Assembly: GCF_000813005.1 (NCBI RefSeq)
Contig: NZ_JSYP01000001.1
Location: 248,001 to 312,000 of the forward strand
Direction of reading: 5' to 3'
Length of the DNA: 64,000 bases
DNA from: Flavobacterium sp. KMS
Lineage (GTDB): Bacteria; Bacteroidota; Bacteroidia; Flavobacteriales; Flavobacteriaceae
Part shown: positions 51,403 to 56,879 of the stretch, in pieces
Position numbering within the stretch: the first letter of the stretch is position 1
How the letters are laid out: each line of letters begins with the position of its first letter
Program-made: the position numbers and the translations under genes
The notes under the pieces: generated by a model
Databases searched by the model: none
Told to the model about the DNA's origin: nothing
What the model saw: the letters and a program-made list of their open reading frames with translations, nothing else

Positions 51403-52860
51403 TTATCTCGCTAAACCTTTAAGTACTAAGATTTGACTTGCTTGTTTTTCGTTAGGACGATTTGTTCCACCATCAACACCTTTGTATTTATCACCAGTCC
51501 AAGTATGTGGCTGTACACTCAACATAAAAGTATCTTCGATACCAACTTGCTCCGAAATATCGATTAAAGCACCATACTCCCAATCTCCAAATTGAGACAT
51601 TCCACCTACGTTATATTTAGCAGCATCAGCTTGCGTACGACGGTGATCTAACTCCACCACAACTTTTAAATCTTTAGTTGCAATGTTGTATTGATAAATG
51701 TAAGCATCATGAGTTTCGTCTCCGTAACCATTAGCATCTTCCTGAACGTAAACAAAGTTTTTAGTTACACAAATGTTATCAGGGTTTTGAAATTTACCAG
51801 CAATTCCAGTACGGTTATCACCATCAAGAACAACCTCTAGAGTTCCTTTTAATGGATCTGCAGCATCAAGATTCAATCTATAAACTCTACCGTATTTAGT
51901 TCTGGAAGCATCAGCATTAGTTCCAGTAGTATTTTGTCCAGTTACGTTAAAATACAATTCACGATCAGCAGTACCACCACCTTTGCGGTAATCTAAATCC
52001 TCAACACGACCAAATTTAATCGCTTTCAATGTATTAACCGATGCATTAATTTGAGCACCAGTAAGTGTAGTATGATTATCGATTTTTACAAAAGAAACAG
52101 GATATGATTTACTAACCTCCATATCTTTCTCTCTTTGGTTATCATCATTTCTTTTTAGCATGTATAAAGAACCACTAGATAATTCACCCACAGTATTAGA
52201 TACATACATAAAAACCTGACCTCCGTAAGTTCCAGAGTCATCATCACCAATTACAACAACTGTTTTACCTTTATAAGCAGATGAACGTAAAGGCAAAGCA
52301 TTTTCGGCACTTAAACGACCAAAACCTGCCAATTCCTTAGATACTGAAGCTGAACCTGCACTTCCGTTAGGATCTAATGCATGCGTACGAGATTCCTCTC
52401 CAGATTCTCCACAAGTTAAATAAACAGGACCAAAACCATGTTCAGCTGGCGTAGCCATTGTGGCGCCACATAATCTCCAAGTTCCTCCGCTAGAGTTTAA
52501 CAAATATTCTCCTTTAGTAGGCTTAAATGTTTTGTCAAGAGTAATTCTAGAAACTGCAAAATTGTCTTCGTTGTTTACTAAAAAAGTAAAAGTTCCATCG
52601 GTATTTTTTAACAAACCAGAACCATCAGCAGAACCTCCAAAAACAAATTTCGGACTATCTGGAAAAACATCATCAGAACCAAAAAGAGAATAGATTTTTA
52701 AGTTTTCAAAACCTGCCTTAGCTTTTAACAAACTTGGCGTAACCGATTGGTCTTTTAACACAACACTATTTGTTGCTACTTCCTCTTGATCTTTAGAATC
52801 GTTGTTACATGATGTAATCAGTGATCCCAGAATAATTAGGGGTAAAATAATTCTTTTCAT
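51403..52860 (-). CDS. PhoX-like (DUF839-type) beta-propeller lipoprotein
   Basis: A 485-residue lipoprotein (lipobox TSC, predicted lipidated Cys18). The body looks like a six-bladed propeller: GGTWRLCGATMATPAEHGFG, YLTCGESGEESRTHALDP, GRVYRLNLDAADPLKG and FQNPDNICVTKNFVYVQED. The GTW...C and NPDN...QED patterns recall alkaline phosphatase PhoX, in which such segments bind iron and calcium near the active site. Overall similarity cannot be measured here, so the phosphatase role is tentative; another secreted phosphoesterase or binding protein is possible. It precedes the haem peroxidase lipoprotein gene in the same direction with a 97-bp gap, so the two could form an operon. Confidence 0.55.
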   Translation of the reverse strand: MKRIILPLIILGSLITSCNNDSKDQEEVATNSVVLKDQSVTPSLLKAKAGFENLKIYSLFGSDDVFPDSPKFVFGGSADGSGLLKNTDGTFTFLVNNEDNFAVSRITLDKTFKPTKGEYLLNSSGGTWRLCGATMATPAEHGFGPVYLTCGESGEESRTHALDPNGSAGSASVSKELAGFGRLSAENALPLRSSAYKGKTVVVIGDDDSGTYGGQVFMYVSNTVGELSSGSLYMLKRNDDNQREKDMEVSKSYPVSFVKIDNHTTLTGAQINASVNTLKAIKFGRVEDLDYRKGGGTADRELYFNVTGQNTTGTNADASRTKYGRVYRLNLDAADPLKGTLEVVLDGDNRTGIAGKFQNPDNICVTKNFVYVQEDANGYGDETHDAYIYQYNIATKDLKVVVELDHRRTQADAAKYNVGGMSQFGDWEYGALIDISEQVGIEDTFMLSVQPHTWTGDKYKGVDGGTNRPNEKQASQILVLKGLAR

Positions 52861-53029: not shown

Positions 53030-53087
53030 CATCAAACCAAAAAAAAGAGCCTTATTTCTAAGACTCGTTTTCTAATTGTTGTTTATA
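53030..53087 (-). pseudogene. 58-bp copy of the ppk2 3' end (direct repeat A)
   Basis: Bases 53030-53087 are identical to 54927-54984, the last 30 bp of the ppk2 coding sequence plus its terminator. Read on the minus strand, the copy continues into about 18 further codons (NRSEGMKENSRI then YKQQLENES and stop) that still align without gaps to the ppk2 C-terminus, with diverged residues, then hits a stop. It is thus a remnant of a ppk2-like 3' end, in the same orientation as the intact gene. Confidence 0.75.
53039..53066 (-). terminator. Copy of the ppk2 terminator
   Basis: GAGTCTTA / TAAGGCTC stem (one wobble pair) followed by eight T on the minus strand; identical to 54936-54963. It would terminate transcription leaving the small cluster. 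Confidence 0.6.
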
Positions 53088-53193
53088 AATTCTGCTATTT
53101 TCCTTCATACCCTCAGAGCGATTATGTTCCTTTTGTTTTTTATCTTAATTTAAGCATTAAATCAACTCAAAAATCCATAAAATCTTAAGATTT

Positions 53194-53667
53194 TCATTTA
53201 GAAAAAGTAGTTCTTTTGATGGAGTCTTTTTTAATTTCATTTAGATAAGCATCTATTATCTTTTTCTGCGAATCTACATACTCAGTTTTGTAAACAAGAT
53301 TAATACTGTCCATTTCTCTTTCTTGTTTAAAAAACTTTGAAGAAATAGCTCTCGTAGTGTAATTCCACATAAGATTCATGTCATAAAAGCATTTATTTCG
53401 GACATATATGATTCCGTTTTCTTCAATATAATCCACACGAGAACGGTCCAAAACCCATCTTATGTGCTTATAGTAATTTGGAGAAACTTCATTTGGTTAA
53501 GTAAATTTGTAAAGATTATTGTCAAAAAATATTAATTGGCGGATATAGTTTTCTTCTGCCAAAATTACAAGACGAAGTTTTACATATCTATTATCCAAAT
53601 AATGAGTTGCAGCGATTAAGAATAGCATGATACCTAATATTATAAAATATTTCTTTTCATTTTTCAT
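53194..53667 (-). pseudogene. Small membrane-anchored protein gene broken by an in-frame stop
   Basis: The frame starting at ATG 53667 (NEKKYFIILGIMLFLIAATH, one membrane helix) reads to a TAA at 53497-53499, then continues in the same frame through PNEVSPNYYKHIRWVLDRSR and on to a stop at 53194. Joined, it is a clear paralogue of the next gene upstream (53657-54058): NNRYVELR versus DNRYVKLR, NETPPNFYKNIKFVLE versus NEVSPNYYKHIRWVLD, NGVIYIKYKYMNDLEMIWN versus NGIIYVRNKCFYDMNLMWN. The stop stands where the intact copy has Glu, so a single-base GAA to TAA change would explain it. The start overlaps the end of the upstream paralogue by 11 bp. Confidence 0.78.
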
Positions 53668-54058
53668 AATGCGAATCTTCATACTGCTTTCTATAAATTC
53701 GATAAAGACTATCTTCTTTTCTTTTAATCTTAAGCCAATCGGCGTCGTTCGTTTTAAGTGTATGATTCCAAATCATTTCTAAATCATTCATGTATTTATA
53801 CTTAATATAAATCACTCCATTTTTCACAATATAGTCCTGGTGTTCTCGTTCTAAAACAAATTTTATATTCTTATAAAAATTCGGTGGAGTTTCATTTCGC
53901 TCTGCAATCCTATAAAAATCATTTTGAAAAATTATTATAGGATGTGGTTCATCTTTTGAAAGTACAGGACGAAGTTCGACATATCTATTATTCCAATAAT
54001 AATAAGTCCCAAATAAAACAATCAGAACAGCTAATGTTACGTATATCTTCTTTTTCAT
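53657..54058 (-). CDS. Small membrane-anchored protein of unknown function (intact paralogue)
   Basis: A 133-residue protein with one N-terminal helix (KKKIYVTLAVLIVLFGTYYYW, residues 2-22) and a charged periplasmic or cytoplasmic part ending KQYEDSHYEK. It is the intact member of a tandem pair with the broken gene 53194-53667, which has about 20 more C-terminal residues. It lies 6 bp after the stop of the 246-residue protein gene, so the three form an operon. Small anchored proteins directly downstream of a larger orphan protein are a common layout for immunity genes, but no such role is shown here. Confidence 0.65.
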   Translation of the reverse strand: MKKKIYVTLAVLIVLFGTYYYWNNRYVELRPVLSKDEPHPIIIFQNDFYRIAERNETPPNFYKNIKFVLEREHQDYIVKNGVIYIKYKYMNDLEMIWNHTLKTNDADWLKIKRKEDSLYRIYRKQYEDSHYEK

Positions 54059-54064
54059 TTTTTT

Positions 54065-54805
54065 CTATTTCAATTTAATACTTAAACCTCCTAAAAATCC
54101 TGATTGAAAGGTTCTATTAAAACTTTGTTGCCATTGGCTTCTCATATCAAATGGTTTTGCGCCACAATATTTCTCTACCAATAAAGCTTCTGAATCTCCA
54201 ACGTTTCCAAAACCATAAATGAAAGCATTCGCTCCTTTATGCCAATCGTATCTATCCCACCAAGAATGGACTATCGTACCCGATAACACAAAATTATCTT
54301 TCATCTTTGTAATCTTAAAATTACATTCAGAAATTATTGTACTAGTCCCGCATGTATAATACAACTCACCAAAAATCCCTCCCGTGAACATATAATGTAA
54401 TTTATTATTATAATCTATAAAATCTCCTACCTTAATTAGTGTTTTATCGAAATTTTCATTTTTAAGTCTATCCTCAAAACGTTCAATATTTTCTTCTTCC
54501 GCAGCAATAACCTCTCTCTGTTTTCTAAGCCAATTAAAATTGATGTTTTTTGTAAATCCTGAACCGTCTAACCACCATTGCAAACAATCGGCTGCCATAT
54601 TAAAATTTCTTGCTCTAGATTTTTCAATCATTTTAATATAATTTGCTTTAAGCATCAAGGCTTTCTCTCTTTCGTTCAGTTGCAAATATATGTTTCTTGC
54701 CTTTAAACTCCCTGCTTCGCCCCAAAAAGGATCTCCAAAGAGGTTCGTATATTCATAAGGTTTTAAATCGCTTTTTATTCCAAATCCAAAAGTGCTTGTA
54801 TCCAT
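54065..54805 (-). CDS. Orphan 246-residue protein of unknown function
   Basis: I do not recognise this protein. It starts at ATG 54805 with an in-frame stop a few codons upstream, so it is not a cut-off fragment on that side. There is no signal peptide. Visible features: helical N-terminal half with MAADCLQWWLDGSGFTKN near residues 70-87 and a charged EEENIERFEDRLKNENF; the C-terminal half is beta-like and Trp/Tyr/Gly-rich (IVHSWWDRYDWHKGANAF near 180, then DSEALLVEKYCGAKPFDM). It heads the three-gene unit between the two ppk2-end repeats and lies 149 bp from ppk2. The pattern could fit the C-terminal domain of a toxin or effector, but this is speculation. Confidence 0.6.
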   Translation of the reverse strand: MDTSTFGFGIKSDLKPYEYTNLFGDPFWGEAGSLKARNIYLQLNEREKALMLKANYIKMIEKSRARNFNMAADCLQWWLDGSGFTKNINFNWLRKQREVIAAEEENIERFEDRLKNENFDKTLIKVGDFIDYNNKLHYMFTGGIFGELYYTCGTSTIISECNFKITKMKDNFVLSGTIVHSWWDRYDWHKGANAFIYGFGNVGDSEALLVEKYCGAKPFDMRSQWQQSFNRTFQSGFLGGLSIKLK

Positions 54806-54926
54806 GATGCTTAATTATTGTAGCTTTTTCACTATTTTAATCAAACATAAGAAAAATTACACAAAACAAGAACTAATAAGAATCTGTTTTCGGTTTTTAC
54901 AGCAAACCAAATCAGTCAACTTTAAC

Positions 54927-54984
54927 CATCAAACCAAAAAAAAGAGCCTTATTTCTAAGACTCGTTTTCTAATTGTTGTTTATA
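54927..54984 (-). repeat. 58-bp direct repeat B: end of ppk2 plus terminator
   Basis: Identical to 53030-53087. This copy holds the last ten codons of the intact ppk2 gene (MYKQQLENES, stop) and the following terminator. Together the repeats bracket 1839 bp (53088-54926) carrying the three orphan ORFs. Confidence 0.8.
54936..54963 (-). terminator. Intrinsic terminator of ppk2
   Basis: On the minus strand GAGTCTTA-GAAA-TAAGGCTC followed by TTTTTTTT. The stem includes the ppk2 stop codon. Confidence 0.75.
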
Positions 54985-55836
54985 CATTTTAATGTTATCC
55001 TTAATACTATCAGGCAGTTCTGGTTCCTTAATGTCAGCATGTTTTTGCATCACTTCCCAAATAATTCTGGCTACAATATAACGTGCCATTTCTTTATCAT
55101 CTGCAGGAACAACATACCACGGAGCATCTTTGGTCGAAGTTTTATTTATTGCTTCTTCATAATATTGCTGATATTCATCCCAATGACTACGTTCCTTTAA
55201 ATCCGATACCGAGAATTTCCAATTGTGTTTTTCTTCCTCCAATCTGCGCAATAACCTTTGGCGTTGTTCCTCTTTACTTAAGTGCAAATAAAACTTCAGA
55301 ACAATAGTTCCGTTTTGGGTAATATGCTTCTCAAAATTATTAATTTGTTCAATTCTGTCCTTCCAGAAATCTTCCGGAATATCCTCTACCTTCTCAATTC
55401 CGGGCAAATTCTCATTTAATAAAAATTCAGGATGTACGCGTGTTACCAAAATATTCTCGTAATGCGTACGGTTAAAAATCGCATACTTCCCTTTTTCAGG
55501 CAAAGCAAGATAATGTCTCCATAAATAGTCATGCTCCAACTCAGCCGAAGTAGGCGTTTTAAAACTATGAACCACAACACCACGCGGATTAAATTCCTTA
55601 AAAACCTCACGAATCAAACTATCCTTCCCCGAAGTATCCATTCCTTGTAAACAAATCAAAACGCCGTACCTATTATGTGCATACATCACATCTTGTAGTT
55701 TACTCAATTTGGCCTGAACCTTATCCAGCTTCACTTCCTTCTCTTTCTCATCGGCATCTATATCCAACAAAGTCGGGATTTTTGATAATTTTATTTTATC
55801 AACAACTTTAAAATTTTTCGGGTCAATTGATTTCAT
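54955..55836 (-). CDS. ppk2: Polyphosphate kinase 2 family protein
   Basis: A 293-residue PPK2 enzyme using polyphosphate to phosphorylate nucleotides. Walker A is CLQGMDTSGKDSLI (near residue 60-75); GVVVHSFKTPTSAELEHDYLW and FNRTHYENILVTRVHP follow, corresponding to the polyphosphate- and nucleotide-binding parts and Walker B region; RLEEEKHNWKFSVSDLKERS near 215 is the lid module. Length fits a single-domain PPK2 (nucleoside mono- or diphosphate type; substrate class not determined). The last 10 codons and terminator are duplicated at 53030. The gene is alone upstream. Confidence 0.94.
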   Translation of the reverse strand: MKSIDPKNFKVVDKIKLSKIPTLLDIDADEKEKEVKLDKVQAKLSKLQDVMYAHNRYGVLICLQGMDTSGKDSLIREVFKEFNPRGVVVHSFKTPTSAELEHDYLWRHYLALPEKGKYAIFNRTHYENILVTRVHPEFLLNENLPGIEKVEDIPEDFWKDRIEQINNFEKHITQNGTIVLKFYLHLSKEEQRQRLLRRLEEEKHNWKFSVSDLKERSHWDEYQQYYEEAINKTSTKDAPWYVVPADDKEMARYIVARIIWEVMQKHADIKEPELPDSIKDNIKMYKQQLENES

Positions 55837-56045
55837 AATTCCTCGTTTTAATTAAAGTAAATATACTATTTTTGGTCAGCTTTTTCCCGCTTTGCATTAC
55901 AATACTTTTCAGTAAATTGCTTTTTTCTAAAAAGTAACAGGAGCTTCCGCTGGTCGCTCTGTTCCTTCAAGAAAAAACAACAATTTCCTCTCAAAGTATT
56001 TTCATTATAATCGGGGCTAAAACAACTACGTTTAAAACAACAATC

Positions 56046-56879
56046 ATGGAAAAATTCACACTCGAAATCCTATTCCAAATCATCGGGATCGGTTCAGCAT
56101 CAGGACTTATATATCAAGACAATTCATTATATATCATTGGCGATAATAGTGGTTATTTATACGAATACAACATCGATAATTCCGATTTAAAAAAACATGA
56201 GATAATTGCAAATCCAACCGAAAATATTGCAAAAAATATAAAACCCGATTTTGAGTCCATCACACATCATAACGATACCTTATATATTTTTGGTTCAGGC
56301 TCAACCGACCAAAGAAATAAAATGGTCGAATTTGATGTAAAATCAAAAACCAAAATCACTACAAACAACTTAACCGATTTTTATGCCGTAATGCAAAACT
56401 TCTCAGGAATAAAACCCGAAAATTTTAATCTGGAAGGCTCTATTTTTGATGGAGAAAACTGGTACTTATTCAATCGTGGAAACGGAAAAACCAATAAAAA
56501 CTCCATATTTACCATACACGCCAAAAGTCTGGGAGATGAATTCAGTCTTATATCTGTAGATTATAAACTACCTAAAATAAAAGGAGTTCGCAGCAGTTTT
56601 ACCGATGCCATACTTGTAGATAATAAAATTTACTTTTTGGCTACAGCCGAAGATACAGAATCAACTTATGCCGATGGAGAGATATTAGGTAGTTTTATTG
56701 GTAGAATCGATTTAAAAACCATGAAAATCGACTACACCAAAAAAATTAGTGCAACCAATAAATTTGAAGGACTTACACTTTATAAAAAATCTAACAATCA
56801 AATTGAGTTTTTACTTTGCGAAGACAATGATACTGAGCTTTTAGAAACTAAAATTTACAAATTAACCCTAAACAATTAA
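56046..56879 (+). CDS. DUF6929-like beta-propeller-type protein
   Basis: A 277-residue protein without signal peptide. It is built from short repeats of YxxG/DG-turn strands: SASGLIYQDNSLYIIGDNSG, THHNDTLYIFGSGST, EGSIFDGENWYLFNRGNG, FTDAILVDNKIYFLATAED, which together suggest a propeller of about six blades. It resembles DUF6929 proteins in my memory; function unknown. The next gene follows 1 bp after the stop, so the two are translated from one transcript. Confidence 0.65.
   Translation: MEKFTLEILFQIIGIGSASGLIYQDNSLYIIGDNSGYLYEYNIDNSDLKKHEIIANPTENIAKNIKPDFESITHHNDTLYIFGSGSTDQRNKMVEFDVKSKTKITTNNLTDFYAVMQNFSGIKPENFNLEGSIFDGENWYLFNRGNGKTNKNSIFTIHAKSLGDEFSLISVDYKLPKIKGVRSSFTDAILVDNKIYFLATAEDTESTYADGEILGSFIGRIDLKTMKIDYTKKISATNKFEGLTLYKKSNNQIEFLLCEDNDTELLETKIYKLTLNN

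What the first reader, a model, noticed from the sequence alone, without database searches (positions are those of the whole stretch)
53030..54984. Three-ORF cassette between two direct copies of the ppk2 3' end
A 58-bp sequence made of the last ten ppk2 codons plus the intrinsic terminator is present identically at 54927-54984 (intact gene) and 53030-53087. The far copy continues for about 18 codons that align in frame with the ppk2 C-terminus but have diverged, so it is a true gene-end remnant and not only a shared terminator. The 1839 bp between hold an orphan 246-aa gene and a tandem pair of small membrane-protein genes, one of them broken. This is the footprint expected when DNA is added at the end of a gene and the end is rebuilt, yet no integrase, transposase or tRNA is present. 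The gene end plus terminator may act as a recombination site for a small accessory cassette. An alternative is that the remnant is the tail of a third paralogue of the small genes, since its RIYKQQLENE also resembles RIYRKQYEDS.
Basis: partly seen in the sequence, partly recalled or inferred. Interest (0 to 1): 0.72.

Follow-up and report, generated by a model that had tools for sequence, protein, structure and literature searches.

The report
Toxin cassette lodged at gene end
In this Flavobacterium a 1,897-base block holding a predicted antibacterial toxin gene and two likely protection genes (one broken) sits at the end of the ppk2 gene, between two copies of that end, while the nine nearest relatives examined have one copy and no block; this and related genomes carry other genes between copies of other gene ends, so gene ends likely serve as landing places where such blocks would enter or leave without an enzyme of their own.

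Summary
In detail: 58 identical bases (ppk2 end plus terminator) lie at 53030-53087 and 54927-54984, and ppk2-like sequence runs on to 53132. The nine nearest ppk2 relatives have one copy and 198-202 bp to the next gene; the window has 2,098. The difference equals the repeat spacing (1,897): an insertion, unless the relatives lost it. The cargo is an orphan Rhs-type C-terminal domain with a predicted colicin M-like fold, plus two small proteins, likely immunity, one with an in-frame stop. Such cassettes also follow ppk2 in three other lineages, replace ppk2 in a fourth, and sit at other gene ends. Strong direct repeats flank 5 of 18 cassettes against 5 of 215 control blocks. Elsewhere in this genome the end of a 113-aa gene flanks a lipoprotein gene; in relatives the same end flanks other genes. 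Best explanation: cargo enters, leaves and is swapped by homologous recombination in a portable copy of the host gene's 3' end. The crossover itself is inferred. Against it: 13 of 18 cassettes lack strong repeats, and 613 genes of this genome show no general 3'-end bias. No recombinase lies in the block. New variant of a known kind.

The parts
54955..55836 (-). ppk2, intact polyphosphate kinase 2 gene; host gene of the insertion
   Evidence: PF03976 E 2.6e-60
54927..54984 (-). near copy of the 58-bp repeat: last ten ppk2 codons (stop included) plus intrinsic terminator
   Evidence: identical to 53030-53087; hairpin -13.9 kcal/mol, z -3.45
54065..54805 (-). 246-aa orphan Rhs-CT-type gene, predicted antibacterial toxin
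   Evidence: 50% identity over 82% to P0080, whose source names it an RHS core protein; fold matches of middling strength to colicin M-type bacteriocins and a T6SS effector
53657..54058 (-). 133-aa small protein with N-terminal hydrophobic stretch, likely immunity protein
   Evidence: one to four such genes follow the toxin gene in 16 of 18 cassettes; hydropathy
53194..53667 (-). second, paralogous small gene, broken by one in-frame stop (53497-53499)
53088..53132 (-). decayed ppk2-like codons ahead of the far copy
   Evidence: 29 of 45 identical to the window's ppk2, 32 of 45 to that of G313; 1 of 1000 shuffles as good
53030..53087 (-). far copy of the 58-bp repeat, followed by the native downstream sequence
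53030..54926 (.). 1,897-bp unit absent from the nine nearest relatives examined (one repeat copy plus cargo; the edges can be slid along the repeat)
51403..52860 (-). native neighbour gene (485 aa; called phoX in my scripts, name not tested), next after ppk2 in 27 of 40 relatives

Best explanation
This is a 1,897-bp unit at the 3' end of ppk2, absent from the nine nearest relatives examined, that carries a predicted toxin gene and two likely immunity genes (one broken) and that likely entered by homologous recombination between the resident ppk2 end and a copy of such an end on the incoming DNA. Shown: one repeat copy and no cargo in relatives; native sequence upstream of the near copy and downstream of the far copy; the far copy lacks the rest of ppk2. 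Inferred: donor DNA (a circle, a multimer or a fragment that already had two copies) carried cargo next to a ppk2 end; one crossover in the 58-bp core placed the cargo between two copies, left ppk2 whole with its terminator, and left a silent 5'-truncated end on the far side. The same repeat would allow scarless loss and swapping of cargo. Gene 3' ends would be favoured because there such an insertion leaves the host gene intact. The toxin would act in the periplasm of competitors, as colicin M does, and the small anchored proteins would protect the producer.
For: Empty sites in the 9 nearest ppk2 relatives of 40 examined; gap 198-202 bp against 2,098. Toxin cassettes next to ppk2 in four scattered lineages, at least 3 changes forced by well supported branches, plus F. 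daemonense, where the cassette stands between the usual neighbours and ppk2 is not found in the fetched 12.7 kb. Direct repeats of score 37 or more flank 5 of 18 cassettes against 5 of 215 control blocks. Same layout with other cargo: the end of a 113-aa gene around a 253-aa lipoprotein gene in this genome (97 nt, 91%), around a 144-aa RidA-like gene in G283, G275 and G298 and around another 253-aa gene in G244; after its far copy this genome continues as the undivided locus of G174. Last 157 nt or more of a DUF1826-like gene (87%) repeated after a 95-aa ORF in G278. A 77-aa gene end repeated after toxin plus immunity in G278 and after a short frame in G395. No recombinase family in the block.
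Against: Only 1 of 43 ppk2 loci has the repeat pair, and 13 of 18 toxin cassettes have no repeat of score 37 or more. G385 has the lipoprotein gene after the 113-aa gene without a far copy. In 613 genes of this genome partial copies of gene ends are rare and not clearly commoner at 3' than at 5' ends: 3 against 2 at score 45 or more, one of the 3 an unlikely ORF. No donor circle or donor genome was found. Part of the 58-bp identity may be selection on the terminator. By their positions the five highest controls are one gene block in related genomes, so the controls are not independent. Three of the five cassette repeats (L103, L113) or half-repeats are terminator stretches that could be alike for other reasons.
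Confidence: 0.55

Rival explanations
1. Site-specific insertion by an enzyme supplied from elsewhere (tyrosine recombinase or an unknown transposase), with the gene end as attachment site; each block brings a new gene end and displaces the old one.
For: Unit length equal to repeat spacing. At the 113-aa locus the far copies of G000, G283, G298 and G275 begin at the same base although the cargo differs, and this genome's near end resembles the far ends of G283 and G298 while its far end resembles the undivided locus of G174.
Against: Host genes differ and repeat lengths vary from 26 to over 100 nt; no common motif was seen by eye, none was tested for; no recombinase in the window block (the other blocks were read as ORF lists, not scanned by family); the ppk2 repeat is identical at the terminator side, not at the break.
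Confidence: 0.25
2. Old tandem duplication of the region (gene end plus cargo) followed by decay, with losses of the cassette in relatives by recombination between the repeats.
For: The small genes themselves are a tandem array; scarless loss would leave the empty site seen.
Against: The nine nearest relatives, and all 27 of the 40 examined that have ppk2 next to the native neighbour, lack the cargo, so many losses are needed; the native flank joins the far copy directly.
Confidence: 0.12
3. The far copy is the tail of a third small membrane-protein gene or a shared generic terminator.
For: Weak resemblance of RIYKQQLENE to RIYRKQYEDS.
Against: No better than shuffles against the small-gene ends, 1 of 1000 against ppk2; terminator core only at ppk2 loci among those fetched.
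Confidence: 0.02

Closest known systems
Genomic islands that integrate at the 3' end of a gene (for example SGI1 at trmE; PMC8409611, search listing with abstract start)
   Same: Insertion at a gene 3' end that leaves the host gene whole; flanking repeats of the gene end are recalled for such islands, not read here.
   Different: No integrase, 1.9 kb only, several unrelated host genes, far copy partly decayed.
Orphan Rhs toxin/immunity modules (Salmonella; PMC3967940, passages)
   Same: A C-terminal toxin domain of Rhs type with a small partner gene, apart from a full Rhs gene; homologous recombination as the mover.
   Different: Own start codon, no Rhs-core piece, outside any rhs locus; the homology used would be the end of an unrelated gene.
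rAID immunity arrays of Bacteroidales (PMC12247911, passages)
   Same: Co-oriented short immunity-like genes.
   Different: rAID has a predicted tyrosine recombinase and conserved intergenic motifs; no recombinase here, motifs not looked for.
Colicin M family of lipid II-cleaving bacteriocins and Cmi immunity (PMC8469651, passages)
   Same: Predicted fold of middling match; DxYD kept in 43 of 45 relatives; partner with an N-terminal hydrophobic stretch.
   Different: HR of the DxYD(x5)HR motif absent in the window's protein; no Pfam or PDB sequence match; relatives at the end of Rhs proteins.
Merodiploids made by natural transformation in Streptococcus pneumoniae (PMC3784515, search listing with abstract start)
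   Same: Partial duplications as a product of genetic exchange.
   Different: Another organism; here a short gene end around foreign cargo, inferred from genomes alone.

Membership tests
Integrase-driven gene-end island | Insertion at a gene 3' end that leaves the gene whole, flanked by direct repeats of the end | tested here: met
Integrase-driven gene-end island | Site-specific recombinase gene in the element | tested here: not met
   three genes only, no recombinase family by Pfam
Orphan Rhs toxin/immunity module | Toxin domain also found as the C-terminus of Rhs proteins | tested here: met
   P0080, 50% over 82%, named RHS by its source although Pfam gives it no family; P0083 weaker
Orphan Rhs toxin/immunity module | Fragment of the Rhs core ahead of the toxin domain, near an rhs gene | tested here: not met
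   own start codon, neighbours ppk2 and the 485-aa gene; the 13 Rhs-core matches of this genome lie on other contigs
Orphan Rhs toxin/immunity module | Toxic activity neutralised by the linked small protein | not testable with these tools
   needs expression
Colicin M family | DxYD(x5)HR active-site motif | tested here: not met
   DxYD in 43 of 45 rows; at x5 the window has NA and A194 is nearly invariant (motif from PMC8469651)
Colicin M family | Colicin M fold | tested here: inconclusive
Colicin M family | Sequence match to the family in Pfam or PDB | tested here: not met
rAID array | Tyrosine recombinase at the head of the array | tested here: not met
   none in the block
Integron cassette | attC site and integron integrase | not tested
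   no attC search was run; no integrase family in the block

The most novel reading that the evidence does not exclude
Flavobacterium has a cargo-blind cassette system without its own enzyme: any accessory gene that becomes joined to a copy of a host gene's 3' end and terminator becomes a portable unit that homes to that gene end in other strains, stacks there, and is lost or swapped without a scar, so that ordinary gene ends play the part that attachment sites play in integrons.
Probability: 0.25. Interest if true: 0.8.

Novelty: new variant of a known kind. Interest (0 to 1): 0.52.

Why it matters
Small accessory genes, toxins and immunity genes above all, turn over quickly in bacterial genomes, often with no mobile element in sight. 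If gene ends act as portable homology handles, this gives a general, testable route for that turnover, with a visible footprint (a 5'-truncated gene end on the far side of the cargo) that can be searched for in any genome. It also adds an Rhs-linked, predicted colicin M-like toxin with tandem, decaying immunity genes to Flavobacterium.

Tried and rejected
Import of the ppk2 3' half with the cassette: the 3' half differs more from G283 (42 against 9 differences), but one search shows that about 10% is the background and the ppk2 start is the unusually similar part, so this says nothing about the cassette. One ancestral ppk2-site lineage of the toxin: the N-terminal tree is unresolved (3 changes, 102 of 500 shuffles as low) and the C-terminal tree needs 4 (G318 left out of the tested group); not claimed. 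A genome-wide 3'-end bias: not seen in 613 genes. The repeats at L029 (153 nt) and the outer ones at L101 and L106 look like dispersed repeats, which was not tested; they were not counted. L104 shows a 48-nt repeat (score 30) but scores 10, where a nearer ORF set the left edge; it is not among the five. A by-eye trace of a decayed ppk2 end plus terminator after the cassette of G051 was not picked up by the scans and is not counted. One search lists two or more matches for a number of genomes, G283, G385 and G051 among them; the second places were not shown and not followed. An empty site for the own-genome copy on C5: G298 has another terminator there and G385 other DNA, so undecided. DUF1826-like gene of G278: flank of the far copy not matched in the relatives printed. 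In one search two of 60 loci (L286, L293) were dropped for want of a central match. PDB sequence search found nothing and PADLOC nothing. Weak Pfam rows under their cut-offs, one of them a TnsA-like row for a small gene of L014, were taken as chance. Papers on gene-end duplication around cargo without a recombinase: searches (no paper) showed none that I recognised, from listings alone; PMC2717098 (Bordetella petrii island excision) may bear on it and was not read.

Full report
Check of the observation. The 58-bp run 53030-53087 equals 54927-54984 and ends on both sides exactly there. Similarity to the ppk2 end runs on for 45 nt of lower identity, in frame (KEHNRSEGMKENSRIYKQQLENES against KEPELPDSIKDNIKMYKQQLENES). 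The 45 nt resemble the ppk2 end beyond shuffles and the ends of the small genes no better than shuffles. The gene end has two places in the whole genome, and the exact terminator core is found only at ppk2 loci among 316 fetched loci.

Empty site. A 917-bp ppk2 query matched 298 of 398 Flavobacterium genomes. I fetched 10 kb around ppk2, about 8 kb of it downstream, in 40 of them, mostly the best matches. In 27 of the 40 the next gene is the same 485-aa neighbour as in the window, and in none of the 40 does the toxin gene lie there (the cassette-bearing G051 and G101 were fetched apart). In the nine nearest by ppk2 sequence the gap is 198-202 bp; in the window 2,098. The difference is the repeat spacing. 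The alignment shows the window's near copy joined to native ppk2 and the far copy to native downstream sequence. Among 43 ppk2 loci only the window has a direct second copy of the gene end of this strength within reach of the fetched stretch. Gain in the window's lineage is the simplest reading, but loss by recombination between the repeats would leave the same empty site.

Spread. A match to the toxin is in 11 of 299 genus genomes, an Rhs protein and a fragment included, and in 3 of 80 more. A pattern scan of GTDB genomes gave 15 loci, all Flavobacterium. This genome has three copies. The gene sits after ppk2 in the window, G051, G101 and G318; on the ppk2 tree of 55 rows these are scattered, with at least three changes forced. 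In F. daemonense it lies between the usual neighbours, while ppk2 is not found in the fetched 12.7 kb; the rest of that genome was not searched. Residues 1-110 of P0058 (Flavobacterium sp. PS2) equal the window's while the rest differs, and N- and C-terminal trees disagree, so the protein itself is shuffled.

Repeats around other cassettes. Dropping the broken or cut copies L115, L029 and L030 and the Rhs locus L012, 18 cassettes were scored for the best direct repeat between the upstream gene end and the downstream intergenic stretch: 73 (window), 73 (L108), 46 (L101), 42 (L113), 37 (L103), 25 (L027), 24 (L107), the other eleven 17 or less. Of 215 control blocks drawn from 51 loci, 5 reached 37; by their positions these five are one gene block in related genomes. 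The repeats of L103, L113 and L107 are terminator stretches and could be shared terminators; those of the window, L101 and L108 are gene sequence, L108's being internal to an HTH-type gene and not its very end.

Other cargo. In a survey of 613 genes on 0.8 Mb of this genome, two convincing partial 3'-end copies with cargo between were found: ppk2 and a 113-aa gene whose end (97 nt, 91%) recurs after a 253-aa lipoprotein gene. A third hit is an unlikely ORF. Partial 5'-end copies are about as rare, two at the same score, so no genome-wide bias is claimed. In relatives the end of the 113-aa gene flanks a 144-aa RidA-like gene on the other strand (G283, G298, G275) or a 253-aa gene of another kind (G244); in G174, G266 and G395 one copy was seen, and in G385 the lipoprotein gene follows without a far copy (functional names are my reading, and only 1.5 kb on each side was held). 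After the far copy this genome continues as G174 does after its only copy (217 nt at 86%, then 304 nt at 87%), so G174 shows the undivided site. The near end of this genome resembles the far ends of G283 and G298: the gene end seems to have been replaced together with the cargo. Of 29 loci of this gene family 4 have a 3'-end copy (one with 61% coverage, near the paralogue line) and none a 5'-end copy; of 29 loci of a 77-aa family 1 has a partial 3'-end copy, 1 a whole paralogue, and none a 5'-end copy. After the 77-aa gene lie toxin plus immunity in G278 (68 nt, 87%) and, in G395, a frame of about 49 codons read by eye; a stretch beyond it is 77% alike over 57 nt to the gene end of G278. In G278 the end of a DUF1826-like gene (157 nt, 87%) recurs after a 95-aa ORF (the DUF1826 name is recalled).

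Mechanism. One crossover between a resident gene end and the same end on incoming DNA gives all parts: whole gene, cargo, truncated end, native flank. The 45 nt before the core are closer to the G313 allele (32 of 45) than to the window's own (29 of 45), a weak sign that the end came from elsewhere; five residues that the nine nearest relatives share are changed, so it has also decayed. The identical 58 bp coincide largely with the terminator hairpin, so identity alone does not prove a recent exchange. The rival, a recombinase acting from elsewhere, is kept alive by the common break point at the 113-aa locus.

What is known. Gene-end islands with integrases, orphan Rhs modules and rAID arrays each share part of this; the membership rows say where each fails. 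Searches listed no paper on recombinase-free cargo exchange at gene ends that I recognised; only listings were seen there.

Noticed in passing
window 54955-56250: The first 420 bp of ppk2 and a few hundred bp before it are almost identical to G283 (9 differences in those 420 bp) while the rest of the locus differs by about 10%, the mark of a recent exchange between species here.
   Followed up: partly
L025, L027 (G000 contigs C28 and C5): Two further toxin/immunity cassettes in the same genome, each with two small genes or pieces of them; the C5 one seems to sit in a split terminator between convergent genes.
   Followed up: partly
G000 contig C46, 22-9305: Five Rhs-core matches in a row on one strand, likely an array of orphan Rhs modules.
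   Followed up: no
L105 (F. daemonense): ppk2 is not found between its usual neighbours where the toxin cassette stands; a ppk2-type terminator is left.
   Followed up: no
P0058, Flavobacterium sp. PS2: Toxin identical to the window's over residues 1-110 and different after that: a C-terminal swap.
   Followed up: partly
L186 1300-2800 and 58 related loci: Unnamed 113-aa and 77-aa gene families with several copies in many genomes, in some loci beside an XRE-like regulator, with varied genes after them; no Pfam family.
   Followed up: partly
P0082 (F. tructae): An InsA-like N-terminus fused in frame to a toxin C-terminal piece and a small-gene protein.
   Followed up: no
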